From a virus, in IMG/VR virus record IMGVR_UViG_3300048694_000356, positions 1-20,090 of that record: a DNA stretch of 20,090 nt; one strand, given 5' to 3'. A model generated the notes under the pieces. The model searched no databases and was not told the DNA's origin. It was given only the letters and a program-made list of their open reading frames with translations. A program made the position numbers and the translations under genes. How positions within the stretch are numbered: position 1 is the stretch's first letter; each line of letters starts with the position of its first letter. Below are positions 3 to 18,826 of the stretch, piece by piece.

Positions 3-119
3 ATCTGGGACATAACCTCCACCTGCAAGTTTGCTAAACGACATCTTACTAAGCGTAAGCAGTTTTATAAAGAAGCAAACTATCCTTTTACAATAGAGAA
101 AACAGATTGGCAAAACTAA
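3..119 (+). CDS. C-terminal end of a truncated unknown gene
   Basis: An open frame enters from the left edge and stops with TAA at 117-119, giving the last 38 residues of a protein. The tail is basic and aromatic (many K, R, Y, F, W) and I recognise no motif in it. The frame is the only one open through this stretch on the plus strand, and its stop overlaps the TTG start of the next gene by 13 bases, the tight packing seen throughout the following operon. Function unknown. Confidence 0.6.
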   Translation: MWDITSTCKFAKRHLTKRKQFYKEANYPFTIEKTDWQN

Positions 120-904
120 TAGTATGCGGTTGCTCTTATTCGGCACCTAGTCGGTCATTACCGGGTACTGCGTATGGAGAAGTGTTAGCTAAGAAGTTAG
201 GATGGGACGTAGAGATATTGGCACGTCAAGGTTGTTCCAATGGCGGCATCCGTGTACAAATAGATGAAGTATTGCGTCAACGTCCTGCGTTTGCTATTAT
301 TGCTCCTACGTTTCATGACCGTATGGAAATACCTGCTAGTGCGGCACCATACGATTGGACACAAAACACAGAGCGTGGGTGGAATCCTAGCTTACAACAA
401 CACTTACAAAAAGAAATGCTCAACGGATATGATAAGTCTGTAGGCATTGATAATGTAAACTATGGTAATAATCCATATCGTATGATATGCGAAACCATTT
501 TTAGTTTAGCAGAGAACTATGATCATCCTTACCGTTCTAGTAAGATAGATAAAAATACACAAGCCGCAGTTAAGGGTTACATTAACCATATGTACGACTC
601 AAACTGGAAGCGTCAACAAGACGAATGGATTATCCGGGACGGTATTATGCAGTTGTTCTATAGTGGCATTCCATTCTTAGTTGTTGCAAATAACCTATGG
701 GATAGTGGAACTGTGCGTACAGCTATACCTAGTGTAGTTGATGACAAATACCTGACCCTTGACTACAAGGAAACACCTGCTTATGCTACCAACGAGTGGC
801 CGTTTGAAGGTAAAGATGACCCAGGATACCACGGTAGTCCTAAGAGCCAAGAGTACTTAGCAGAAGTATATTACAAAAAAGTATGCGAGCAGTTGCACTT
901 GTAG
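107..904 (+). CDS. SGNH/GDSL-like hydrolase (GCS variant)
   Basis: The 265-residue product begins with a hydrophobic strand running into G8-C9-S10, the position of block I (GDS/GxS) in SGNH hydrolases, so Ser10 would be the nucleophile. G42 to N45 and T68 to D71 fit the later glycine/asparagine blocks, and D238 and H242 near the C-terminus could supply the rest of a triad, although the spacing is DxxxH instead of the usual DxxH. Family members remove acyl groups from sugars, lipids or peptidoglycan; the substrate here is unknown. There is no signal peptide or membrane segment. TTG at 107 is the first possible start after the in-frame stop at 68-70. The gene overlaps the deacetylase gene by 22 bases. 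It is distantly paralogous in layout to the gene at 2657-3289. The fold is inferred from motifs only. Confidence 0.6.
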   Translation: MAKLIVCGCSYSAPSRSLPGTAYGEVLAKKLGWDVEILARQGCSNGGIRVQIDEVLRQRPAFAIIAPTFHDRMEIPASAAPYDWTQNTERGWNPSLQQHLQKEMLNGYDKSVGIDNVNYGNNPYRMICETIFSLAENYDHPYRSSKIDKNTQAAVKGYINHMYDSNWKRQQDEWIIRDGIMQLFYSGIPFLVVANNLWDSGTVRTAIPSVVDDKYLTLDYKETPAYATNEWPFEGKDDPGYHGSPKSQEYLAEVYYKKVCEQLHL

Positions 905-1440
905 CACACCCAGACGATTGTGTTATCTTTGGATGGCCCTTTATAGAGGCACATCCGGAGTTTGAATGGCATATTAACTATCTAACATATTCTTTTATGG
1001 ATGCCCGTGCTAGGGAATTAAACGCATACTGGAATAAGCGTGGCATACTAACAACTTTTTTAGGAATGAAAGACGATTGGGAGTATGTAAAGAATGGAGA
1101 GTTGGGGTTTGATCCCGACATAGCTCGACAGGATATCATTAATTCATCGAGCAAATACGATTTAATACTAACACACTATGAAGATGGCGAATACGGGCAT
1201 CCTCATCATAAGTTTGTAAACACTATTGCCAATCAAATTGGTAAACCAAAGGTTTACTTTGCTAGTACATTTAACTATAATGTAGAATATGTAGTAAAAG
1301 AAGGAGTAGCAGTAGAAGAACTTCCATTACATAGAAGTGTAATTGAAGAATTTACTGATCGAAATATCGGGAGATATATCGTGACGCCGGAAGCGGAGAC
1401 TTTAATCAATAATAACAATGAGAATATTAACCTTAGATAA
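883..1440 (+). CDS. PIG-L/LmbE-type N-acetylglucosaminyl deacetylase
   Basis: The 185-residue product opens with strand VALVAH and the motif A-H9-P10-D11-D12, the family's first zinc-binding signature, and has a second cluster G-H106-P-H108-H109, matching the HxxH-type signature. H9, D12 and H109 would bind zinc, with D11 as general base. Family members hydrolyse the N-acetyl group of GlcNAc-containing glycans or small GlcNAc conjugates. At 185 residues it is shorter than typical bacterial members (about 220-250). It lies in a tight operon with a GCS-type hydrolase on either side (directly upstream, and at 2657), so a joint role in modifying glycans is possible. The ATG lies inside the upstream gene with no clear ribosome site, suggesting translational coupling. 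The substrate is unknown. Confidence 0.8.
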   Translation: MRAVALVAHPDDCVIFGWPFIEAHPEFEWHINYLTYSFMDARARELNAYWNKRGILTTFLGMKDDWEYVKNGELGFDPDIARQDIINSSSKYDLILTHYEDGEYGHPHHKFVNTIANQIGKPKVYFASTFNYNVEYVVKEGVAVEELPLHRSVIEEFTDRNIGRYIVTPEAETLINNNNENINLR

Positions 1441-2193: not shown

Positions 2194-2660
2194 GTGACCC
2201 ACTAGATATTAAAAACGAAATGGCGCAGTTTGATCGTAAGAATCGTAATTTTTACGATAGTCTTGACGACGAACAAAAGAAGAAGTTTAGTCCATTTTTA
2301 ATGATTCGTTGGGGTAGTAGTGTGGGGGGTAGCTTTGACTTACAGGCTTACTACTTAATGAGTTGCAATGAAAATCTAAACAAGAACTTCTTTGATATAA
2401 ACACTACACAACATAAAAAACTACAGTGGTTATTAGCCACTACGGTTAGTCCGGGCATGGGAAATCAATATCATCAATGGTTATCTCTTAAGAAAAAGGG
2501 TACTACTGATAATAAGAGTATTAAGTTTTTGCGTGAACTACACCCCGATATGAAGGATGAAGATCTTAAATTAATGGCCGAACTGAATAGTAAAGACGAT
2601 CTTAAAGAACATGCCCGCCTATTAGGCTGGGATGATAAAACTATTAAGAAAGAGCTATGA
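2190..2660 (+). CDS. Probable clamp-loader small subunit (T4 gp62-like)
   Basis: With ATG 2190 (ATGA overlap with the preceding stop) the product has 156 residues; an in-frame ATG at 2178 is possible. The layout resembles T4 gp62 (187 residues), the monomeric partner of the gp44 ATPase that loads the gp45 sliding clamp: an acidic helical N-terminus, a block FSPFLMIRW aligned with the gp62 'KFMVEN' region, a YYLMSCNE helix, then HKKLQWLLATT with a later W in the position of the gp62 HFNYL...KW region, and a C-terminal helical segment. It has no Walker motifs, as expected for this subunit. No gp44 or gp45 gene lies in the window, so context support is limited to the neighbouring DnaE-like and primase/helicase genes. 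Similarity is judged by eye and is moderate. Confidence 0.55.
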   Translation: MSDPLDIKNEMAQFDRKNRNFYDSLDDEQKKKFSPFLMIRWGSSVGGSFDLQAYYLMSCNENLNKNFFDINTTQHKKLQWLLATTVSPGMGNQYHQWLSLKKKGTTDNKSIKFLRELHPDMKDEDLKLMAELNSKDDLKEHARLLGWDDKTIKKEL

Positions 2661-3289
2661 ACATACTGTTAAATGGCTGTAGCTTTATGGATAGCTATTA
2701 TTACAGTCAACACTTTAATCGATTACTTGGTGCTAATACTGTAAACATAGCCAAGCCCGGTAGTTCCAATCGTCGTATTATCCGCACTACACTAGATTAT
2801 ATAGAGCAAAACCCAGTTGACTTAGTTGTGCTGGGTTTAACTTTTTATGATCGTCAAGAAAGTCCACTAATCAAACGAGCAGATCCGTGGGTTAGTTATA
2901 ATAGCCAGGGTATGCAAGCTCAATTTGCATCAGCAGATGATTTTGATTCTACAGTAGAGCATAAACTAGTTGACGATTATGTTAAATCTAGATATAAGTT
3001 TGATATCAATGAACATTACATAGAGCAACTGTATTTAGATTTAAAGTTATTTGGTGCATACCTGCGTGAACAGGATATTAAGTTCTTAATATTCAATACT
3101 TGCGATACACACTTGCACGAAAATTTAGGTCCGGGCTTTGTGCCATTTACATTTGTAGGCAATACTTATTTAGAGAAAATGGGTAGCCAGTGTATGGAAC
3201 AGGATCGAGACTTGCCCCACAATGCTAGACATCATTATGGTGAAGATGTTATAATATTAGTTAAGCGTTTACTTGAGTTTATTGAATAA
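2657..3289 (+). CDS. SGNH-like hydrolase (GCS variant), second copy
   Basis: The 210-residue product starts with a hydrophobic strand ending G7-C8-S9, the block I nucleophile position; G35-S-S-N38 and G60-L-T62 to D65 fit the middle blocks, and D185-L-P-H188 is a clean DxxH block V, which would complete a Ser9/Asp185/His188 triad. This is a better match to the family than the protein at 107-904, with which it shares the GCS start, the G-S-N block and the T-F-x-D-R block. It has no secretion signal, so it acts in the cytoplasm or after lysis. The start ATG overlaps the preceding stop (ATGA) and its stop overlaps the next start (TAATG). The substrate is unknown; esterase or deacylase activity on a glycan is the simplest guess. 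Confidence 0.65.
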   Translation: MNILLNGCSFMDSYYYSQHFNRLLGANTVNIAKPGSSNRRIIRTTLDYIEQNPVDLVVLGLTFYDRQESPLIKRADPWVSYNSQGMQAQFASADDFDSTVEHKLVDDYVKSRYKFDINEHYIEQLYLDLKLFGAYLREQDIKFLIFNTCDTHLHENLGPGFVPFTFVGNTYLEKMGSQCMEQDRDLPHNARHHYGEDVIILVKRLLEFIE

Positions 3290-3969
3290 TGTATAAATGT
3301 CGTTATTGCGAAAAAGAATTCAGCAAGGAATCAACCTTGGCTGTGCATCTTTGCGAGCAAAAACGTCGTTGGCAACAAGAAAAAGAAGTAGGTGTGCAGT
3401 TAGGACTTAAAGCATACTTACGATTCTACGAAATCACACAAGGTTCGGCTAAGTTAAAGTCGTATGAGGACTTTGTTAAGAGTCCTTATTACAATGCATT
3501 TGTTAAGTGGGGTAGACAAATGGTAGCCATACGTGGTATTAACCCACCTGCCTTCTTAGAATGGCTGTTAAAAAATAATAAAAAGATTGACCACTGGCTT
3601 AAAGACGAATTTTATGTAACATACTTACATGAATACTTACGTAGAGAAGCAACACAAGACGCTCTAGAGCGAGCATTAAAGGAAATGCAAGATTATGCAG
3701 ACGATCATCCAGAACTCAAAAATGGTTTTAGCGATTACTTTCGCTACGGCAATAGTAACCGCATTTGCCATCACATTAGTACCGGTCGTGTTAGCCCTTG
3801 GATTCTATACAACTGCACTAGTGGGGTTGATTTTCTTAGCAGTTTGCACGAGGAACAAATAGAAATAGTACTACCGTGGATAGACCCCGACCATTGGCAA
3901 CGTCGATTTAAAGATTACCTAGCAGATACAGAGTGGGTTAAGGATATACTACAGAAAGCAGGACTATGA
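3289..3969 (+). CDS. Zinc-finger protein of unknown function, 226 aa
   Basis: The N-terminus carries C4-x2-C7-x12-H20-x-C22, a compact C2HC version of the C2H2 finger, followed by a basic stretch (KRR at about 25-27). The remaining 190 residues are predicted helical and include a tryptophan-rich middle and a conserved-looking GRVSPWILYN segment (about residues 166-175). A finger followed by basic residues suggests nucleic-acid or protein binding; an operon position between a putative clamp-loader subunit and a DnaE-like protein would fit a replication or transcription accessory role, but this is inference. No catalytic motif is visible. TAATG overlap at the start and ATGA overlap at the end indicate coupled translation. 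Confidence 0.75.
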   Translation: MYKCRYCEKEFSKESTLAVHLCEQKRRWQQEKEVGVQLGLKAYLRFYEITQGSAKLKSYEDFVKSPYYNAFVKWGRQMVAIRGINPPAFLEWLLKNNKKIDHWLKDEFYVTYLHEYLRREATQDALERALKEMQDYADDHPELKNGFSDYFRYGNSNRICHHISTGRVSPWILYNCTSGVDFLSSLHEEQIEIVLPWIDPDHWQRRFKDYLADTEWVKDILQKAGL

Positions 3970-4178
3970 AGATCATTAGAATACCACACAACACTAACGA
4001 ACGAGGTGTAGAGATGTGGGCAGTTAAAACTCTACGCATCAAACGCGAACTTAAAGAACACGGATTAGAAGAACGCAGGGATTATGATTGTAACTTTGTA
4101 TCTAAGGGATATATTGAAATGCGTTTCTACAATCCACAAGACCCTGCTGTTAGTTTATTTTGTTTAAAGTACTCATGA
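3966..4178 (+). CDS. Small unknown protein, 70 aa
   Basis: This is a 70-residue product with alternating basic and hydrophobic residues, a short helix around residues 17-35 rich in K, R and E, and a beta-like C-terminal half. It has no recognisable family. It overlaps both neighbours by the ATGA arrangement (start at 3966, next start at 4175), which supports it as a real gene rather than a chance frame. It could be an accessory factor of the zinc-finger or DnaE-like neighbours, but nothing in the sequence shows this. Confidence 0.65.
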   Translation: MKIIRIPHNTNERGVEMWAVKTLRIKRELKEHGLEERRDYDCNFVSKGYIEMRFYNPQDPAVSLFCLKYS

Positions 4179-4768
4179 AATTTAAATCAGACATTGATAT
4201 CGACTTTGGTGATCGCACACAAGCATTAAAGTTGCTTAAAGTTACACCTGCGAGTATATTACGTGATGGGAAGTTAATACAGCATAATACGGGAGTGTAT
4301 CCAACTGCAATCCCTGTAGATCCATTTACTGGAATGTCTAGTATTGAATATGAATCTGCAGAAGATCGTGGCTATGCTAAGTTAGACTTTTTGAACGTAT
4401 CATTATATACGCAGATAAAGAACGAAGCGCATTTACAAGAGTTAATTAAGCATGAACCCTTGTGGGATTTATTGTTAGAGCGTAGTGTATGCGAACAATT
4501 AATACACATTAATAATCACTATGATACATTAATGAAAATGCCTGAGCCTGTAAACTCTATTCCTAGAATGGCTATGTTCTTGAGTGTTATTCGTCCTGCA
4601 AAAAGACATTTAATTGGTAAAACTTGGAAGGAAGTTGCTGAAACTGTTTGGGATAAACCTACTGATGATAGTTACTACTTTAAGAAAAGCCACGCTATTG
4701 CTTACGCAAATTTGGTGGCTGTTAATTTGAATTTATTTTGTGAAAAAATTAGCTGGGAGTTTAGCTAA
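4175..4768 (+). CDS. Miniature DnaE-like (family C polymerase) palm/fingers protein
   Basis: Starting at ATG 4175 (ATGA overlap) the product has 197 residues. It carries, in order, the landmarks of the bacterial replicative polymerase DnaE: SDIDIDF (D6, D8, D10) like PDxDxDF with catalytic D401 and D403 of E. coli alpha; H37-x2-G-V41 like the HAxGV motif; GYAKLDFLNV (66-75) like LVKFDFLGL, with D71 at the position of catalytic D555; IRP within SVIRPAKRHLIG (137-148) like the RPG motif; and FKKSHAIAYANL (169-180) like FNKSHxAAY. DnaE itself exceeds 1100 residues, so the PHP, thumb, tail and most of the fingers are missing. It may be a minimal nucleotidyl-transfer enzyme, a terminal transferase, or a relic with another role. 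The motif order is seen directly; homology and activity are inferred. Confidence 0.65.
   Translation: MKFKSDIDIDFGDRTQALKLLKVTPASILRDGKLIQHNTGVYPTAIPVDPFTGMSSIEYESAEDRGYAKLDFLNVSLYTQIKNEAHLQELIKHEPLWDLLLERSVCEQLIHINNHYDTLMKMPEPVNSIPRMAMFLSVIRPAKRHLIGKTWKEVAETVWDKPTDDSYYFKKSHAIAYANLVAVNLNLFCEKISWEFS
4761..4768. other. Palindrome with interlocked convergent stop codons
   Basis: TTAGCTAA reads the same on both strands and holds the TAA stop of the plus-strand DnaE-like gene (4766-4768) and the TAA stop of the minus-strand gene (4761-4763). The two coding regions overlap by these eight bases and there is no room for a separate terminator. Confidence 0.8.
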
Positions 4769-5135
4769 CTTTACGAACTAGAGTTATACTCTTGCGCTTA
4801 CTACGCTTACTAGCCATTTCTTTAAGGCTAACATAAGGCCCCATTTTAATTTCCACGTCTTTACTATTCATAGTACGTAGACAAGTTTTAAACAATACCC
4901 AATCTTGTTTTAGAAAAACATTAATAGGCATTAGTCTATTACTTTCCCACCACCATGTTTCCCCGAGGCTTAGGAATATACGCTTAAGATCATCGTCTTT
5001 TAGCGTTCCGAAGTCGTACAAAGTAGTAATAACTTCATCAAAATTCTGTATGATGCCAATATAGTCGTTACCGCCATAGGTAATATAGCTTATGAACGGG
5101 TATTGTGCGAGTAGTTGCTTGTAGTGATCTTCCAC
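4761..5135 (-). CDS. Unknown phage protein on the minus strand, 124 aa
   Basis: This is the only convincing minus-strand gene. It reads from GTG 5135 to TAA 4763-4761; no ATG lies upstream in frame. The 124-residue product has an aromatic, beta-like N-terminal half (HYKQLLAQYPFISYITYGG), a WWWES cluster near residue 60-65, and a very basic C-terminus (KRSKRKSITLVRKV) that could bind nucleic acid. I recognise no family. Its stop codon interlocks with that of the DnaE-like gene in the palindrome TTAGCTAA (4761-4768), and its start faces a late promoter that fires the other way. I see no promoter for it in the 35 bases upstream. Confidence 0.7.
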   Translation of the reverse strand: MEDHYKQLLAQYPFISYITYGGNDYIGIIQNFDEVITTLYDFGTLKDDDLKRIFLSLGETWWWESNRLMPINVFLKQDWVLFKTCLRTMNSKDVEIKMGPYVSLKEMASKRSKRKSITLVRKVS

Positions 5136-5680: not shown

Positions 5681-8600
5681 TGTCGGGAAATATTCGCCTA
5701 ACACAAATATTATTAAAACGCGGCAATACAGCCGCTGCCAGTTCTTATATTGGTCCAATTGGCGAAATAGTAATTGACACAGATTTACAAACGCTACGTA
5801 TACAAGACGGATTAACTCCTGGCGGACATATTGCTAGCGCAGATTTAACTGGCATTAACAGTAATATTGCCAGCTTACAGTCAAGTATTAGTGCTATTAC
5901 AGGAATTGATACAGAATTTGTTGCTAACATAAATGCACTATTATCAAACGCCGCTACACAACAAACACAAATTAATACACTCACTGGTGATTTTATTTTT
6001 GAAGGCAATATTCTTAGAGACCCGAATGCTTTTTCTCTTAGTAACCAAATTGATAACGGCAGTTCTACTGCACGATTAAGTATTCCTGCATACGGCGATG
6101 CAAGTAATCCTATTACATTATACAACAATTATGGCAATGTTGATGTTTTAGTTGGTACCGACAGCACAATAACAGGTGCCTGGCAATTTAATAATAATGG
6201 GCAATTAAATGTACCTCAATTTTCAGGATTAAACATTAACTGGTATAGTGACACAGCAGGTGCTGGTGATAGCCATTTAGATCAATTACAACTTTACAAT
6301 ACGCACCTCGATGGTCTGCGTATTAAAAATACTGTAGACGGTGTTGACCACGAATGGAAGTTTGGTAAAGATAAAAATGTTTACTTACCATCCGATGGCG
6401 GTATTGTATTCTCTGGCGGAACACAAACTATGCCGTACCTTGGACCAACTGGCGACATGGTATCCGTTATGTCAACTCCGCCAATGGCGGCTACTGGTGC
6501 ATTATGGTATAGTACCGAAGATGGTAGATTATATATATCCAACGGAGATTTCTGGGTTGATGCTAGTCCACAAGTTGTTCCTACTAATATGGTTGGGTAT
6601 GATGTTAATGGTAATATAACACTACCAAGTAACTTAGACTTTACATCAAGTCCGGCTATACAAACTACCGGTATCGTGTTTGGAGACGGAACGTTCCAGA
6701 CTACAGCATATACTGGCGGCGGAAGTGTTGGTACGCCAACACAGGTTATTGGTACAGCAGGTACTTATAATAATCCACATATTGTACAAGTAAATCCAAC
6801 CGACAATAACTGGAACTTTGGTTTCTACTCAGACAATGCAAGTCAATTCTTTACACAGACTACATTTTATGGTGATGGTACTGCTAATAGAGGATTTAGA
6901 GTTCTTGATTTACAAAACGGCAACACACCATTAACTGTTGACAGTAGAAATATTGTTACACTTGGCTCTGGGGCACAGCTAGCATTTGCTGATGGTGGCA
7001 TGATAGATTCTGTTGGCAGTGGTGTACTTGGAATCCAATACTTACAAAGCACAGGTATCCAAGTTGCACAAATTAATGGACTTGGCACTAGTTCATTGAC
7101 GCTACAAGCAAATAATAATAACTTTGTATTTGGGTCAGATGGCACGTTGGCGCTAGCCGGACCAGTACTTGGCGTAGCAAGACCACAGTTTCCACCGGCA
7201 CCACCAGGTTCAATCTTAGATTACAGAGTCTTAGTACAACCTAATAGTGGCGATTCAAGTCGACAGTTTGTATTTTGGTTATCACCTGGCACCACACAGG
7301 GTGGGTTCGAATTACCCCCATCGGGCGACACCGGGGTTATGGGTATCAACCTTTCACATACGAACGGTAATACCGGTGAACTATTTACAGACGAATCTGG
7401 AACGAATTTATACGCACTAGGCGGAAATATAAATTTATATACTAATAATGGTACTAATAGTTATACATTAACTTTAAACAGCACAGACGGTTCCTTAATA
7501 TTCCCCGATCACACTATCCAAACTACAGCCTTTACAGGTCCGCAAGATTTAAGCGGTTATGCAACTACATCGGCCGTTGATACAGCAATTAGTACAGCAA
7601 TTAATAATCTAATAGATTCTGCACCGGGTACACTAGATACATTACAAGAAATCGCAGCCAACTTAGCCGCAGAGGCAGGCGCAATTGGTAGTATCACAAG
7701 CAGTATTGCATCAACTAATGCAAACGTAACTGCGGCAAATTTAACGATTGCTGGATTACTAACAAATCATATCACAGGTGTTAGTGGATTTACATTATTT
7801 GATGGTATAGGAAGCACTATAGTAGCAACAGGCGCTGTAGACAACTCTTATGCTCTTGCTGGTGTTTATTATTTACAAATTATCAAAACAAAATTGCCAA
7901 GCAATTTTAATACCCAGTTATCTGCCGGTACGTGGACGGTGCAATGTAACACCGATACATCAACTGTTACTAGCGTAGAGAGTGTTGATTATTACGGAAC
8001 ACCTGCGTGGAAGATACACACAAGTAGTAGCGTTAGCGGTGCAGGCTATATTCCAACATTTGTACAACATACTTCAAATGGTTCTATTACCTTCCCAGAC
8101 AGTACAGTTCAAACTACAGCATATACTGGATTTGGTAATGCTAACGTAGCGGCTTACCTAGCACAATCATCGAGTAGTCCAATTACAACAACAGGTAATA
8201 TTGGTGGCGGAAACGTTATTGTTATTAACAATATTACGGCTAGCACATTCACATATCCAAATGGAGCTCCGTATGCTGGCACATATAGTAATGCTAACGT
8301 AATAAGCTATCTATCAACAAATACAGCCACAGTAGCTAACTTGGTTATAACAGGATCTGCTCCAAGTTCATTAATTGGGACAGCAGGCGACGTTGCTGGT
8401 ATGATTCGTGTAGACAGTAACTACATTTACTATTGCACAACTACATTTACTCCGAGCACATATACCGTGGGCTGGGGCGGCGCAACAAGCGGTACAATTT
8501 TCTTAACTAAGGGATCGTATCCTCAACCACAAACAGGATGGACAGTTAGTGGTATTTCGGGATACGGCGGAACACTTACCATCACTGGAGTAAGCGATGG

Positions 8601-12638: not shown

Positions 12639-12649
12639 TGTACGATGCT
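12619..12649. promoter_or_regulatory. 11-bp perfect inverted repeat around -10 and start codon
   Basis: AGCATCGTACA (12619-12629) and TGTACGATGCT (12639-12649) are perfect reverse complements separated by nine bases (12630-12638) that contain the -10 hexamer. The right arm contains the primase ATG (12645-12647). No T-run follows, so it is not an intrinsic terminator. It could be an operator for a repressor covering the -10. In read-through transcripts from upstream it would be an RNA hairpin that hides the start codon. Confidence 0.7.
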
Positions 12650-13682
12650 GAATTCTATCCGCGACGCAGTAACCCAAATATTACCGCATAAACGTAAAAC
12701 TAATGCTACCTCTGGTTGGATTAGTTTTAATGCACCTTGTTGCGTACACAACGGAGAAAGTGCAGATACTCGCGGTCGTGGTGGACTAGTAATGAACCCA
12801 GATGGTGGTGTTAGCTATCATTGCTTTAATTGCAATTTCAAAGCTAGCTATGTTCCCGGTCGCCACTTAACATATAAATTCCGTAAATTATTATCTTGGC
12901 TAGGTGCCGACGATGGTACTGTTAAACGATTAGTAATTGATGCTATTCGTATTAAAGATTTAGTAGCACCCGAGCAAATCGTTGAAGCAACAGAACAAGA
13001 AGAAATAAAATTTAAAGCAAGACCATTGCCCGAAGAAGCGCAGTCGTTTTATGCACTACACAGCTTTTACGAATTAAACAATAATGTTGATGTACCAGAT
13101 GATTGGCACAAAGCTGTAATATATACGGGCGCCGCTAGACAAATTGATTGTTCTAAGTATGATTTTTACTGGACACCGGAAAAGCAATACAATTTACACA
13201 AACGAGTTATTGTTCCATTTACTTGGAAAAATCAAATCATTGGCTACTCTGCTCGTGCATGGGACGACACCGTAAAGCCTAAGTACCATTCAAGTTACGA
13301 ACCTAACTATGTATTCAATGTCGATCGTCAACACAAAGATTCAAAGTTTGTTATTGTAGTCGAAGGACCGTTTGATGCTATGGCTATAGACGGCATAGCT
13401 GTATTAAGTAACGAGTGCTCTGAAATACAAGCAGACATTATTGATAGCTTGGGTAGAGAAGTTATTGTTGTACCAGATGCTGATAAGGCCGGCGCCAAAC
13501 TAATTGACCAAGCAATAGAATATGGATGGAGTGTTAGTTTTCCTGTATGGCAAAATTCTTGTAAAGACGTTGCAGACGCAGTAGCAAAATATGGTAAGTT
13601 ATTTGTATTAAAAAGCATATTAGAAGCGCGGCAATCGAATAAATTAAAAATTGAATTACGTAAAAAGAAACTATATAATTAA
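12645..13682 (+). CDS. DNA primase (T4 gp61-like)
   Basis: The 345-residue product matches the size of T4 gp61 (342). The N-terminal zinc-ribbon is C32/C33-x-H35 with C60-x2-C63, used to recognise the template start site. A TOPRIM catalytic fold follows: VIVVEGPFDAMAI with E240, and VVPDADKAG with D278 and D280, the metal-binding Glu and DxD. It makes RNA primers for lagging-strand synthesis and works with the hexameric helicase encoded directly downstream (two bases between stop and start). There is no Shine-Dalgarno at the ATG, and the start lies in the inverted repeat downstream of the sigma70 promoter. There is no alternative Met until about residue 50, inside the zinc domain, so the start is fixed. 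Confidence 0.9.
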   Translation: MLNSIRDAVTQILPHKRKTNATSGWISFNAPCCVHNGESADTRGRGGLVMNPDGGVSYHCFNCNFKASYVPGRHLTYKFRKLLSWLGADDGTVKRLVIDAIRIKDLVAPEQIVEATEQEEIKFKARPLPEEAQSFYALHSFYELNNNVDVPDDWHKAVIYTGAARQIDCSKYDFYWTPEKQYNLHKRVIVPFTWKNQIIGYSARAWDDTVKPKYHSSYEPNYVFNVDRQHKDSKFVIVVEGPFDAMAIDGIAVLSNECSEIQADIIDSLGREVIVVPDADKAGAKLIDQAIEYGWSVSFPVWQNSCKDVADAVAKYGKLFVLKSILEARQSNKLKIELRKKKLYN

Positions 13683-13684
13683 CT

Positions 13685-15121
13685 ATGGCAACAGAATATA
13701 CACCAGAGCTACAAAAACTATTTTTGGAAATGATGTTAAATGACGCACAGAACTTTGTGCGTGTACAGAACATTTATAACCCAGAAAACTTTGATCGCAG
13801 TTTGCGCCCCACAGCAGAATTTATTGCCAAGCACTCTGCAGAGTTTAAAACACTTCCTACATACGAACAGATTAAAGCACTAACTGGTGTAGAGCTTAAA
13901 CCTATTCCTGAAACTGTTGACGGACACAGTGAATGGTTTATGCAGGAATTTGAAGGATTCAGTCGTAAGGAAGAACTTAGTCGTGCTATTCTTAAAGCCG
14001 CAGATTTATTAGAAGAAGGCGATTACGATCCTGTTGAGAAGTTGATCAAAGACGCAGTACAAATTAGTTTAACAAAAGACTTAGGTACAGATTACTTTGC
14101 GGATCCTAAAGTACGTATCGACAAATACTATAACTCGGGCGGGCAAGTAAGCACAGGTTGGCCAACTATGGACAAGGTATTGTACGGTGGATTTAGCCGC
14201 GGTGAACTAAACATATTTGCTGGTGGATCGGGCTCAGGTAAGTCTTTAGTTATGATGAACATTGCACTAAGTTGGTTGCAACAAGGACTTAGTGGCGTGT
14301 ATATTTCCTTAGAACTTTCAGAAGAACTAGTAGCATTGCGTACCGATGCAATGTTAACAGGAACAGGTACAAAAGAAATACGCAAGGACATTGAAACTAC
14401 AGAACTTAAAGTTAAGATGGTAGGTAAGAAGTCCGGCAAGTATCGCATTAAAGCATTGCCAGCACAAAGCAACGTAAACGATATTCGTAGCTTTATTAAA
14501 GAATATCAAATACAAACTAATAATAAGGTTGACTTTGTTATGGTTGACTACTTAGACTTAGTAATGCCAGTTTCAGTTAAAGTAAATCCCAATGATCAGT
14601 TTATTAAAGACAAATATGTAGCAGAAGAATTGCGTAACTTATCGCAAGAGCTAGGTGTATTATTAGTAACAGCTTCGCAGTTAAATCGCTCAGCAGTTGA
14701 AGAAATTGAGTTTGACCATAGTCATATTGCAGGTGGTATTTCTAAGATTAATACAGCAGATAACGTATTTGGTATCTTTACATCACGTGCTATGAAAGAA
14801 CGTGGACGTTATCAAATTCAGTGTATGAAATCACGTAGTTCTACTGGTGTGGGACAAAAGATTGACTTAGAATATAACATTGAAACTATGCGTATTACCG
14901 ACCCAGGCGAAGAAGGACAAGAAAGCAATAGTCCGTTTAAACCTGGTGGCAGTATCTTAAGTCAAATTAAAACAACTACTACATTAAACCCTACAACGGG
15001 CTTGCCACAGGTAAAAGAAGGGTTTGATGTCGAAAAAGATGCAGGTCCCCCACCTGGATCTAGTGCAGAAAGCACTAAATTAAAGCAAATGCTTGCTGGT
15101 CTTAAAGCCAAGTCTGAATAG
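13685..15121 (+). CDS. Replicative DNA helicase (T4 gp41/DnaB-like)
   Basis: The 478-residue product (T4 gp41 has 475) has a helical N-terminal domain, then the RecA-like motor of the DnaB family beginning at STGWPTMDKVLYGGFSRGEL. Walker A is GGSGSGKS (residues 180-187, K186); a catalytic Glu lies in LELSEE; Walker B is FVMVDYLDLV; and the H4-type QLNRSAVEE and a late MKSRSS segment follow. The hexamer unwinds DNA ahead of the fork in the 5'-3' direction on the lagging strand and recruits primase. The C-terminal tail of about 70 residues is Pro/Gly/Thr-rich, as in phage relatives. It forms an operon with the primase gene and probably shares its sigma70 promoter. The ribosome site is weak, consistent with coupling. 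Confidence 0.93.
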   Translation: MATEYTPELQKLFLEMMLNDAQNFVRVQNIYNPENFDRSLRPTAEFIAKHSAEFKTLPTYEQIKALTGVELKPIPETVDGHSEWFMQEFEGFSRKEELSRAILKAADLLEEGDYDPVEKLIKDAVQISLTKDLGTDYFADPKVRIDKYYNSGGQVSTGWPTMDKVLYGGFSRGELNIFAGGSGSGKSLVMMNIALSWLQQGLSGVYISLELSEELVALRTDAMLTGTGTKEIRKDIETTELKVKMVGKKSGKYRIKALPAQSNVNDIRSFIKEYQIQTNNKVDFVMVDYLDLVMPVSVKVNPNDQFIKDKYVAEELRNLSQELGVLLVTASQLNRSAVEEIEFDHSHIAGGISKINTADNVFGIFTSRAMKERGRYQIQCMKSRSSTGVGQKIDLEYNIETMRITDPGEEGQESNSPFKPGGSILSQIKTTTTLNPTTGLPQVKEGFDVEKDAGPPPGSSAESTKLKQMLAGLKAKSE

Positions 15122-15405: not shown

Positions 15406-15952
15406 TGAAGTTATTACAGAATCGCAACTCAATGAGCTTGGTCTTAAAGATCTAAAAAGCGGTATTAAAAAAGCCGGTAACTATGCGGCTAACAAAATTG
15501 GCCAAGGTGCTGGTTATGCCGCTGGCGGCGTTGGTAACTATGCTAAAGGTTGGGGCAAAGTTGGTAATAGACTTGCCAAACAACTAGTAGGTAAAGATCC
15601 AAAATCAAGCTGGTTCCAAGGCGATGAAATACCTCAAGGTTCTGTTCCTGTTTATAACGACGACTTAAAACCAAGCCACAATGGAGAAGTTTTTCTTGTT
15701 CGTTATAATGGACAAGAGTATTTTAAAAGCTATACCGGTCGTTGGTATGAGAAACATGGCTTTAATCCAAACGATTTTAGTGCAACACACCCATTGGATA
15801 GTTACAAAGAATATGAAGTATTAGATCAGCAAGTAGCTAATCAAAATTTTCAAAGAATTAATGTAGCACAAGATGCCGACGGCTCTAATAATTTTACCGC
15901 AGTAACTAATCCTTCAAGAGTTCGAGTATCAAAAAAACGTGGACAGAAATAA
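15395..15952 (+). CDS. Putative internal head protein with capsid-targeting-like leader
   Basis: It starts with GTG 15395, with GGAG (15383-15386) upstream. The 185-residue product begins MKINEVITE followed by S, which resembles the T4 internal-protein leader (about ten residues ending I/L-x-E before A, G or S) removed by the gp21 prohead protease. Residues about 22-62 are a basic, Gly/Ala/Tyr-rich stretch with G-x-G-x-x-A-G-type repeats, the central part holds RYNGQEYFKSYTGRWYEKHG, and the C-terminus is basic (RVRVSKKRGQK). I recognise no enzymatic motif. A DNA-associated internal protein is plausible. Its TAA overlaps the next ATG by one base. Confidence 0.65.
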   Translation: MKINEVITESQLNELGLKDLKSGIKKAGNYAANKIGQGAGYAAGGVGNYAKGWGKVGNRLAKQLVGKDPKSSWFQGDEIPQGSVPVYNDDLKPSHNGEVFLVRYNGQEYFKSYTGRWYEKHGFNPNDFSATHPLDSYKEYEVLDQQVANQNFQRINVAQDADGSNNFTAVTNPSRVRVSKKRGQK

Positions 15953-16719
15953 TGTATCTATATGAAGGTGGTAATGTATTTGACAACACAGCAGACGTAC
16001 CCAAGGAGTATGTGGGTCCTGTAGTTGACACGGTTAAACGTGAACTACCAAGTGCATTGCAAAAACAATTAATCCCTAACATTGGATCTGCAGGGTTTAA
16101 AGTAGCTAGCGGCGACATTGATGTATTCTTAGATGAACGTGCATTATTAAAAAACTTTGGTGTCGAAGATGTTAAACAAGCTAAAACGGCATTAGCACAA
16201 TACTTTAGTGCTAAGGGTTATGCAACAAAACTAAGTGGACGTAACGTCCACGTTGATGTTCCGTATCAAGCACAAGATGGTAAGACATATTATGCACAAG
16301 TTGATATAATGGTTATTGCCAACGCTAAAGGTGTAGCAGATTGGCATCAACATGGCCCACGTGGTAGTTATGATGATCCTGGCTTTAAAGCCAATCATCT
16401 TTATATTTTATTAAACTCTATTGGCAAGGCACTTGGAGTTAAAGTAGATGCATTCGGTGGTACAGTTATGCGTCGTGATGATAACACAGTTGTTGCTGAC
16501 AATAGAGAAGATGCCGCTAAGTTATTATTAAATCCCGGTGCACACGCCGCAGACTTAAACTCTGTTGCTACAGTAATGAAAGCACTAGAAGGCGACCCAG
16601 ACAAAGAAGCAAAGCTAGCACAAGCACGTCAAGATCAAAGTAAAGGTTTACTAACACTTCCAGAGGATATTGCCCCAGGGACAGCCGCATGGTTCCGTAA
16701 GATGGGACACAATCTATGA
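15952..16719 (+). CDS. Polymerase-beta-type nucleotidyltransferase, probably virion-packaged
   Basis: The 255-residue product contains the hallmark of the superfamily: G45-S46, then G54-D55-I-D57-VFL, then a third acidic strand YAQVDIMVI with D118, which together would bind two Mg ions and transfer a nucleotide to RNA, protein or a small molecule. A stretch GPRGSYDDPGFKANHLYILLN (in two parts around residues 135-156) and a helical C-terminal part follow. It begins MYLYE then GG, a very short version of the (L/I)xE-G leader seen in its neighbours. The substrate is not evident: tRNA end addition, protein AMPylation or nucleotide cyclisation are all possible. TAATG and ATGA overlaps tie it to both neighbours. 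Confidence 0.7.
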   Translation: MYLYEGGNVFDNTADVPKEYVGPVVDTVKRELPSALQKQLIPNIGSAGFKVASGDIDVFLDERALLKNFGVEDVKQAKTALAQYFSAKGYATKLSGRNVHVDVPYQAQDGKTYYAQVDIMVIANAKGVADWHQHGPRGSYDDPGFKANHLYILLNSIGKALGVKVDAFGGTVMRRDDNTVVADNREDAAKLLLNPGAHAADLNSVATVMKALEGDPDKEAKLAQARQDQSKGLLTLPEDIAPGTAAWFRKMGHNL

Positions 16720-17735
16720 AAATAAGAGATATTATCCTTGAGGGCGGGTGGGACTCTACTGCTACACATGGCACAGTAATACATCCAAGCGTTGTTAAAG
16801 CTGGACTTGCACAAATGCAAAAGTTTATTGCGGGCTTTAATAAGTTCCTTAAAGGTAAAGGCATTCCAGCTGTGCGTATTGGAACTCCAACTGGTAGTAG
16901 TGCTTATCATGATGTTGATCCAGAGGATGCAATATACGGAGATATCGACTTACAGATTATTGTTCCAGTAATGCCTGACTTAGCTGACGCTACAACAGCA
17001 ACCATACAAGGCTGGTGGTATAAGTTAGAAGATGAATTCGTTCGTGCAAATCCTAACATAGTACATGCCGAATCAAGTCCCGGTCATCCTATTCTGAATG
17101 TGGGCAAAGACCAATGGGTACAAGTAGACATGATGATACATCCAGAGCCATTGGCTAAATGGGGTGCGGCTCGTGTTGTTCCTGAGCGTGGTGTTAAAGG
17201 TTTGTTACACGGTAATATGTTTAGTGTGTTTGGCGAGTTGTTAATGATGAGTATTCAACATGCTGGTGCACAACTTAAAGTTAAAGACAATGCACGTGCT
17301 CCTTACTCTACCACAAGAAAATACGATCAGTTAGTAACAGTAACAACTAATCCGGAAACATTTGTATTAGATGTGTTTAACTATGAAGCAAAAGAGTTAG
17401 GAATTAAAAAGCCTAAGATTGCTCCACTACTAAAACAATATCCTGGTAAGAATTTAGAAGATGTTAAGATACAAAATTTAGTTAATGCTGTTAAAGGGTT
17501 TGCAGAAAGTTGCGAACTAAACGGTATGTTTGGACAAGGTGCACTAGCACAGTATACAAGTGCTCAAGACTTTATCGGAAAGTTCTGGCAAGTGTACGAA
17601 GGCAAGGCAATGAAGGATATCAATGCCTCTAAGCGTGATAAAGCAGTAGGTAATCCCGAAGCAGAAGCACGTGCCGAAGAAGATAAACAAAAAATTATGA
17701 AGGGCCTTGAATACGTAAGAGGCATGTTTCAATGA
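16716..17735 (+). CDS. Second nucleotidyltransferase-like protein with capsid-targeting-like leader
   Basis: The 339-residue product starts MKIRDIILE followed by G, fitting the I-x-E-G form of a prohead-protease-cleaved leader. It then shows G60-S61-S62, G75-D76-I-D78-LQIIV and WVQVDMMIHP with D138, the same catalytic triad layout as the gene upstream, with a longer loop between GS and DxD. A helical domain of about 150 residues follows (FGELLMMSIQHAG region and beyond), which could bind substrate, as in poly(A) polymerase and CCA-adding enzymes, and the C-terminus is charged and helical. The two neighbours may be ancient paralogues. The start overlaps the previous stop as ATGA. The target is unknown. 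Confidence 0.7.
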   Translation: MKIRDIILEGGWDSTATHGTVIHPSVVKAGLAQMQKFIAGFNKFLKGKGIPAVRIGTPTGSSAYHDVDPEDAIYGDIDLQIIVPVMPDLADATTATIQGWWYKLEDEFVRANPNIVHAESSPGHPILNVGKDQWVQVDMMIHPEPLAKWGAARVVPERGVKGLLHGNMFSVFGELLMMSIQHAGAQLKVKDNARAPYSTTRKYDQLVTVTTNPETFVLDVFNYEAKELGIKKPKIAPLLKQYPGKNLEDVKIQNLVNAVKGFAESCELNGMFGQGALAQYTSAQDFIGKFWQVYEGKAMKDINASKRDKAVGNPEAEARAEEDKQKIMKGLEYVRGMFQ

Positions 17736-18826
17736 GATTAGATTTTATTAATAACATTCTAGTAGAAGCTCGCACTGGTGCTCAACCTCATCCAGAGGAC
17801 AGCATCTTTGACGGCGCACAAGCCGCTGAGCAAGCTCTAAAAAGTTTACAATATGTTATTAAAAACCCAGGTAGCGTAACTATCAAGTGGGACGGATTTC
17901 CTGCACTTATATTTGGACGTCTACGTGATGGTCGCTTTACAGTACAAGACAAGTATATGTTTGATGCTAAGTTCTTTGCTGATAGTCCTGCTAAATGGCA
18001 AGAATATGATCAACAAAAGAAATCGGGCAAAACACGTCCAGATTTATATCCTAAGCTAGCTAATATTTGGCAGGGACTAGAACAAGCAGTGGGTAGCAGT
18101 GAAGGATTCTTCTGGGGCGACTTACTATGGTGGGACCAACTGCCCGATCAAGGTGGTGCGTATGCGTTTAAACCAAACGTAGTTGAATATCGTGTTAGTG
18201 CTAATACTCCACTAGGTAAGCAAATAGGTAAAAGTGTTGGTGGAGTGGTAGTACATCAATATTTTGCAGACGACGGAGCACCCCCACAGCAATGGAATGG
18301 CAAAGGACTAACTATGAATGGTCCTGTAACAATCTTAACTCCTAGTGCCAATATTAAATTTAGTTTAAATGACCCTGTTCAATTATCACGCGGGGCTGCC
18401 AAAGCAGTTACGCAGTACGGGCAATTAGCTGAAAGTTTTCTAGTAGAATTGCCAGGTGTAGCACGTCAAGCACTACAAAAATATTGCAATAAGAAAATTA
18501 CTGGACAAACCAATGAAGATTTGGGACCATGGCTACAGCACAATGTTAGTGCTAAACAATTTAACTTTTTAGTTGGGGTAGATGGTAACGAAGGTTATTT
18601 AGTACGTGAAGAAAAAGGCTTAAATGCGTTATTTGCTATTTGGAATAGTTTATATGCATTTAAAGTTAATCTAGCGGATCAGCTAGAACACCAAGTACAA
18701 GGTATCGAGCAAACAGTTAACGGAAAACCTGCTGGGGAGGGCTTTGTGTTTAATACCCCGCAAGGGCTTGTAAAGCTAGTAAATCGCGGTACATTTAGTG
18801 CGGCTTTATTTGCAAAAGAAGAATAA
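17732..18826 (+). CDS. Ligase/capping-type covalent nucleotidyltransferase-like protein with leader
   Basis: The 364-residue product begins MRLDFINNILVE followed by A, an L-x-E-A leader. It then shows TIKWDGFPALIFGR with K52-x-D54-G55, the motif I lysine that takes the AMP or GMP in DNA/RNA ligases and capping enzymes; E124-GFFWGD130, which fits motif III; G335-E336-GFVF, which fits motif IV; and GLVKLVN with K348, which fits motif V. The E336 to K348 distance is close to that in T4 RNA ligase 1, while the gap between motifs III and IV is long and must hold an insertion. It probably adenylylates itself and seals or modifies nucleic acid ends. Phage proteins of this kind are often left as unknown. 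The fold is inferred from motif order, not from a search. Confidence 0.6.
   Translation: MRLDFINNILVEARTGAQPHPEDSIFDGAQAAEQALKSLQYVIKNPGSVTIKWDGFPALIFGRLRDGRFTVQDKYMFDAKFFADSPAKWQEYDQQKKSGKTRPDLYPKLANIWQGLEQAVGSSEGFFWGDLLWWDQLPDQGGAYAFKPNVVEYRVSANTPLGKQIGKSVGGVVVHQYFADDGAPPQQWNGKGLTMNGPVTILTPSANIKFSLNDPVQLSRGAAKAVTQYGQLAESFLVELPGVARQALQKYCNKKITGQTNEDLGPWLQHNVSAKQFNFLVGVDGNEGYLVREEKGLNALFAIWNSLYAFKVNLADQLEHQVQGIEQTVNGKPAGEGFVFNTPQGLVKLVNRGTFSAALFAKEE

What the first reader, a model, noticed from the sequence alone, without database searches (positions are those of the whole stretch)
4175..4768. A 197-residue miniature of the bacterial replicative polymerase DnaE
The protein carries five DnaE landmarks in the right order: SDIDIDF (D6, D8), HxxGV, KLDFLNV (D71), an IRP-type motif in SVIRPAKRH, and FKKSHAIAY. 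D6, D8 and D71 occupy the positions of E. coli alpha catalytic residues D401, D403 and D555. A family C polymerase core squeezed into one sixth of the usual length, with all three metal ligands kept, inside a T4-like phage (a group that normally uses a family B polymerase) would be new to me. It may be a minimal transferase, a primer-handling enzyme, or a domesticated regulator.
Basis: partly seen in the sequence, partly recalled or inferred. Interest (0 to 1): 0.85.

Follow-up and report, generated by a model that had tools for sequence, protein, structure and literature searches.

The report
Half of a split phage DNA polymerase
This phage gene makes the second half of a stripped-down bacterial-type DNA polymerase whose first half is made by a distant gene in relatives of the phage; such split enzymes in giant phages were first reported in 2021, but nobody seems to have tested what they do.

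Summary
Window 4175-4768(+) is a real 197-aa gene derived from a family C (DnaE) polymerase, and D6, D8 and D71 match E. coli D401, D403 and D555. They are invariant in 70 diverse homologues. An AlphaFold model (pLDDT 92) matches only C-family polymerases well.

The interpretation needs correction. It is not a whole miniature core but the C-terminal half of a split one. A second, distant gene ("A", about 172 aa) supplies the N-terminal half of the palm with the GRGS motif. It occurs in 59 of 60 listed phage records that carry this gene, and in both near-genome-size close relatives. A matches E. coli residues 278-393 and this protein matches 397-784. PHP, thumb, OB, tail and clamp motif are missing. 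The phages also carry a T4-like family B polymerase.

Iyer et al. 2021 (PMC7824862) already described this split minimal Pol III, so it is a new member of a known kind. Added here: the exact cut, thumb loss, a kept steric-gate histidine, an Arg390-to-acid swap in A (86 of 86), and a possible single-chain relative.

Most likely it works as a two-protein dNTP-adding polymerase for a local task such as gap filling. Activity is unproven.

The parts
4175..4768 (+). C-terminal half ('B') of a split minimal DnaE: second half of the palm plus shortened fingers, 197 aa
   Evidence: ORF; phrog_11778 'DNA polymerase' E 1e-64; AlphaFold pLDDT 92.4; residues 1-195 match C-family polymerases only, E. coli 397-784
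4190..4204 (+). D6-I-D8-I-D10 motif: metal ligands, equal to E. coli D401, D403, plus D405
   Evidence: 70 of 70 homologues; alignment
4283..4294 (+). H37..G40, equal to E. coli H511..G514
   Evidence: 70 of 70; C-family invariant columns
4379..4387 (+). K69-L-D71, equal to E. coli K553 and third metal ligand D555
   Evidence: 70 of 70; alignment
4592..4597 (+). R140-P141, equal to E. coli R639-P640 (fingers)
   Evidence: 70 of 70; alignment
4682..4705 (+). K170..H173..Y177 (KKSHAIAY): fingers helix; H173 equals the E. coli steric-gate residue H760
   Evidence: H173 and Y177 in 70 of 70; H760 modelled as the steric gate in PMC8485763
4761..5135 (-). convergent small gene (124 aa, phrog_11637), overlaps the end of B; a convergent small gene lies in the same place in most relatives examined; role unknown
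3289..3969 (+). gene upstream of B (226 aa, phrog_11058), C2H2-like zinc-finger start below Pfam cut-off
12645..13682 (+). DNA primase of the same replication neighbourhood
   Evidence: phrog_47, E 2e-38
13685..15121 (+). DnaB-like replicative helicase of the same neighbourhood
   Evidence: phrog_19, E 3e-68

Best explanation
The gene encodes the C-terminal half (B) of a family C (DnaE-type) polymerase core cut into two proteins. The other half (A, about 172 aa, with the GRGS nucleotide-binding motif) lies on a distant gene in relatives; this 20-kb window is too short to show it. Shown: B carries the three metal-binding aspartates and the K553, R639 and H760 equivalents; A carries the Gly-Ser loop; A ends at E. 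coli residue 393 and B begins at about 397; both are invariant at these sites and co-occur in essentially every near-complete genome searched. Inferred: A and B assemble in trans into one palm with minimal fingers, bind two Mg ions and a dNTP, and add deoxynucleotides to a DNA 3' end. The kept steric-gate histidine argues for dNTPs. Because thumb, PHP, OB and clamp motif are gone and the phages have a family B replicase, the enzyme is most likely a short-patch accessory polymerase (gap filling, repair, recombination- or primer-linked synthesis), not the main replicase.
For: Family: phrog_11778 E 1e-64. PF07733 matches 86 of 86 A sequences and PF17657 matches 7 of 70 B sequences, best 3e-5. Structure: B and A models both pLDDT 92.4. 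The top 9 Foldseek hits for B and top 8 for A, out of 350,542 chains, are all Pol III alpha or PolC. VIA Z for B is 6.1-9.8 against 3.7 for the next unrelated chain, with B 1-195 on E. coli 397-784. For A it is 6.4-10.6 against 3.1, with A 73-172 on E. coli 278-393. All 100 A ORFs read stop at a conserved D/E-F-[LIM] end followed by one or two residues. B ORFs begin just before SDIDIDF. Co-occurrence: 59 of 60 listed records, the exception a 109-kb partial record; 9 of 9 contigs of at least 329 kb with A have B; the two near-genome-size relatives have A, B and a family B polymerase. Invariant active site. Purifying selection. Neighbours are primase and DnaB helicase. The split arrangement was described independently by Iyer et al. 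2021 (PMC7824862).
Against: No activity has been measured here, and none is reported in the papers read. A-B binding was not modelled, because a two-chain fold was not available. The Arg at E. coli 390, invariant in the C-family sequences compared, is Glu or Asp in 86 of 86 A proteins, and the fingers QE motif (687-688) is deleted. Either change could mean altered or lost nucleotide handling. Without a thumb, grip on primer-template DNA is unexplained. A was not seen in the window's own phage, since only 20 kb is held.
Confidence: 0.68

Rival explanations
1. A catalytically silent scaffold or regulator: the A/B pair kept the DnaE fold but lost polymerisation, and serves as a DNA- or dNTP-sensing factor in the phage replisome.
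For: R390 equivalent swapped to acid in 86 of 86 A proteins and QE motif deleted; no thumb; a full family B polymerase is present.
Against: All three metal ligands, D405, K553, H511, R639, H760 and the GRGS motif are invariant across sequences down to about 30-35% identity; a silent scaffold would be expected to lose metal ligands.
Confidence: 0.17
2. A non-templated or otherwise special nucleotidyltransferase (terminal transferase, end-tailing or protein- or RNA-modifying enzyme) built from the DnaE palm, with chemistry altered by the R390-to-acid change.
For: Catalytic residues kept while thumb and template-side fingers are cut back; conserved departure at R390.
Against: The steric-gate histidine is kept, pointing to dNTP selection as in templated DNA synthesis; fingers helix kept.
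Confidence: 0.12
3. A decoy that binds host Pol III partners and blocks host replication.
For: Derived from a host-type replicase and encoded by a phage (inference only).
Against: The parts through which alpha binds partners (PHP for epsilon, clamp motif, OB and C-terminal domain for the clamp loader) are the parts that are missing; what remains is the catalytic site.
Confidence: 0.03
4. Evolutionary rival on origin: the split minimal form is an ancient relic that preceded full-length DnaE (proposed by Iyer et al. 2021), rather than a reduced product of a full-length or PHP-less DnaE.
For: Minimal domain content and phage-only distribution (PMC7824862).
Against: A 484-kb phage (LR756508) with a family B polymerase carries a single-chain, PHP-less 574-aa DnaE that groups with the split family (88/84, long-branch caution), which would fit stepwise reduction; D405, typical of DnaE and Asn in PolC (PMC3919608), is kept.
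Confidence: 0.3

Closest known systems
Split minimal DNA polymerase III alpha of group 2.2 jumbo phages (Iyer et al. 2021, PMC7824862); phrog_11778 for this half
   Different: No difference in kind found. The window is an uncultured relative (34-50% identical to cultured-phage copies). This work adds the exact cut, thumb loss, residue map and R390-to-acid swap
Bacterial DnaE / Pol III alpha (E. coli)
   Same: Palm and part of the fingers, D401/D403/D405/D555, H511, K553, R639, H760, GRGS loop (the last in partner A)
   Different: Split in two; no PHP, thumb, OB, C-terminal domain or clamp motif; R390 is Glu or Asp; QE motif deleted
PHP-less single-chain DnaE of uncultured 484-kb phage LR756508 (574 aa)
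   Same: No PHP domain, found in a genome with a family B polymerase, reduced core
   Different: One chain; keeps the R390 equivalent and more of the thumb and fingers
Cyanobacterial split-intein DnaE (from general knowledge)
   Same: DnaE encoded as two distant genes
   Different: No intein pieces: A ORFs end at the DnaE core and B ORFs start at it, so no trans-splicing machinery is visible

Membership tests
Split minimal Pol III alpha of jumbo phages (Iyer et al. 2021) | C-terminal piece with the Mg ligands and template-binding part as a separate protein | tested here: met
Split minimal Pol III alpha of jumbo phages (Iyer et al. 2021) | N-terminal NTP-binding piece on a distant gene of the same phage | tested here: inconclusive
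   Met in relatives; the window's own phage is held only as a 20-kb fragment
Split minimal Pol III alpha of jumbo phages (Iyer et al. 2021) | Accompanied by a family B DNA polymerase | tested here: inconclusive
   Met in the four cultured phages searched and in two near-genome-size relatives; not in the 20-kb window itself
C-family DNA polymerase (DnaE) | Three catalytic aspartates D401, D403, D555 | tested here: met
   D6, D8, D71 in 70 of 70; mapping
C-family DNA polymerase (DnaE) | Palm/fingers fold of the C family | tested here: met
   Foldseek and VIA top hits all C-family
C-family DNA polymerase (DnaE) | PHP domain, thumb, OB domain and clamp-binding motif in one long chain | tested here: not met
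   197 aa only; alignment gaps; no other finger-domain piece in six genomes
C-family DNA polymerase (DnaE) | Template-directed DNA synthesis | not testable with these tools
   No assay; inferred only
Split-intein DnaE | Intein halves fused to the DnaE halves | tested here: not met
   A ORFs stop at the core end and B ORFs start at the core

The most novel reading that the evidence does not exclude
A and B assemble into an exceptionally small family C polymerase, thumb-less and with an acid in place of the invariant Arg390, so that it works by altered substrate handling (for example a distributive gap-filler or end-tailing enzyme). It arose inside giant phages by stepwise loss from a PHP-less single-chain form such as that of LR756508, rather than being a relic.
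Probability: 0.25. Interest if true: 0.72.

Novelty: new member of a known kind. Interest (0 to 1): 0.45.

Why it matters
Two small proteins would together define the minimal working core of the bacterial replicative polymerase family, free of PHP, thumb and clamp parts. They are a ready test of what those parts do and of why giant phages keep a second polymerase beside a T4-like one. The split was reported in 2021; no biochemical work on it was found in the papers read.

Tried and rejected
Single-sequence Pfam and PDB searches of B gave no polymerase, nor did a profile search of PDB sequences with B; structure and family-wide searches were needed to show the link. hhalign of B against a lone E. 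coli DnaE was weak (E 0.0024, probability 12). A third DnaE piece was sought with the finger-domain model: only B itself and one weak hit below the cut-off appeared. A fixed A+B+DnaQ module was considered: an RNase_T exonuclease passes the cut-off in only 3 of 6 genomes, so it was dropped. Relatives of the LR756508 enzyme in viral contigs: none found. Bacterial or archaeal origin: 13 MAG loci carry B, at least one on a 283-kb contig that also holds A, so they look like binned phage contigs. Split intein: rejected. In one search a wrong ORF was used for LR756508; corrected. Slip: the A query typed had a few wrong letters at its N-terminus, which does not affect the hits.

Full report
WHAT IS THERE. 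Window 4175-4768(+) encodes 197 aa. Its ATG overlaps the stop codon of the preceding gene (ATGA). Pfam and PDB searches with the single sequence find no polymerase, but PHROGs has the family as phrog_11778 'DNA polymerase' (E 1e-64). Homologues occur in 63 cultured-phage records, 34-50% identical among those listed, nearly all jumbo phages (RaK2/GAP32/121Q-like, PA5oct-like, Atu_ph07, Phosso, SCTP-2, XacN1), and in over 450 stretches of viral contigs.

CONSERVATION. In 70 diverse homologues D6, D8, D10, H37, G40, K69, D71, R140, P141, K143, H173 and Y177 are invariant. Aligned with ten C-family polymerases, all of these except K143 fall on E. coli D401, D403, D405, H511, G514, K553, D555, R639, P640, H760 and Y764. 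Timinskas et al. (PMC3919608) state that D401/D403/D555 are absolutely conserved in the C family and that D405 marks DnaE rather than PolC. H760 is modelled as the steric gate of E. coli Pol III (PMC8485763). dN/dS against the two closest copies is 0.03-0.05.

STRUCTURE. The AlphaFold model has mean pLDDT 92.4. The nine best Foldseek matches among 350,542 PDB chains are all Pol III alpha or PolC (E 0.002-0.4). VIA-align gives Z 6.1-9.8 for fifteen C-family entries and 3.7 for the next unrelated one, with model residues 1-195 on E. coli 397-784.

THE MISSING HALF. Cultured phages with this gene have a second short DnaE-like gene ('A') that matches PF07733. It carries the GRGS motif and ends at E. 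coli residue 393: its model (pLDDT 92.4) matches only C-family enzymes well, residues 73-172 on E. coli 278-393, Z 6.4-10.6 against 3.1. All 100 A ORFs read stop at the same place, a conserved D/E-F-[LIM] end followed by one or two residues. B ORFs start just before the SDIDIDF motif. A is found in 59 of the 60 listed phage records with B; the exception is a 109-kb partial record. Among viral contigs, all nine of at least 329 kb with A also have B. The two longest close relatives of the window (354 and 338 kb) have A, B and a family B polymerase. The genes lie about 15 kb to more than 180 kb apart (about 34 kb in GAP32, about 182 kb in Atu_ph07). A was not seen in the window's own phage, since only 20 kb is held.

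WHAT IS LOST. Relative to DnaE the pair lacks PHP, essentially the whole thumb (about E. coli 438-508), the fingers QE motif, and the OB, C-terminal and clamp-binding parts. No further finger-domain piece was found in six genomes. One change is striking: the Arg at E. coli 390, invariant in the ten C-family sequences compared, is Glu (84) or Asp (2) in all 86 A proteins. From memory, the equivalent Arg in Thermus Pol III contacts the triphosphate; this was not tested.

MECHANISM. The most likely reading is that A and B meet to form one palm: A brings the Gly-Ser nucleotide-binding loop, B the metal-binding aspartates and a short fingers helix with the steric-gate histidine. The complex would add dNTPs to a DNA 3' end. 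Shown: residues, fold, adjacency of the cut, co-occurrence, purifying selection. Inferred: assembly, activity, dNTP preference, and an accessory rather than replicative role. The role is inferred from the family B polymerase, the missing processivity parts, and the place of B near primase and DnaB helicase.

KNOWN OR NEW. Iyer et al. [quoted passage not shown] Earlier genome papers noted what appears to be the A half as a Pol III alpha subunit, truncated in CBB (PMC5259590, PMC6102473). The window is therefore a new member of a known kind. No biochemical study was found in the papers read.

ORIGIN. A 484-kb uncultured phage (LR756508) with a family B polymerase has a single-chain PHP-less DnaE of 574 aa. 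In a 31-row tree it joins the split family with 88/84 support, but both branches are long, so this is only a lead against the relic view.

Noticed in passing
L225:2950-4674 (LR756508.1): Single-chain, PHP-less 574-aa DnaE in a 484-kb phage that also has a family B polymerase; possible unsplit relative of the A/B pair.
   Followed up: partly
L081:8001-8576 (Atu_ph07 gp074): The annotated CDS starts at 8082 and so omits the first two catalytic aspartates; the ORF starts at 8001. The A gene of Vibrio phage 2.275.O (L218) is likewise annotated short.
   Followed up: partly
window 15952-16719 and 16716-17735: Two adjacent genes with GDID motifs that resemble small nucleotidyltransferases; no Pfam match.
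   Followed up: no
window 17732-18826: DUF6267 / phrog_455 protein of unknown function next to the two genes above.
   Followed up: no
window 107-904 and 2657-3289: Two proteins with similar N-termini (GCS motif), perhaps distant copies of one SGNH-like family; no Pfam match.
   Followed up: no
window 883-1440: PIG-L type de-N-acetylase gene (E 1e-7).
   Followed up: no
window 4761-5135(-): Small convergent gene (phrog_11637) overlapping the end of the polymerase half; a small convergent gene lies there in most relatives examined, which suggests a linked role.
   Followed up: partly
L236-L248 (genome contigs): Bacterial and archaeal MAGs carry B, and four of five searched also carry A, some beside ordinary DnaE; these look like jumbo-phage contigs binned into MAGs.
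   Followed up: partly
records OR805294, NC_042013, LR756508: The family B polymerase of these phages matches in two separate reading frames, so it may be split too.
   Followed up: no
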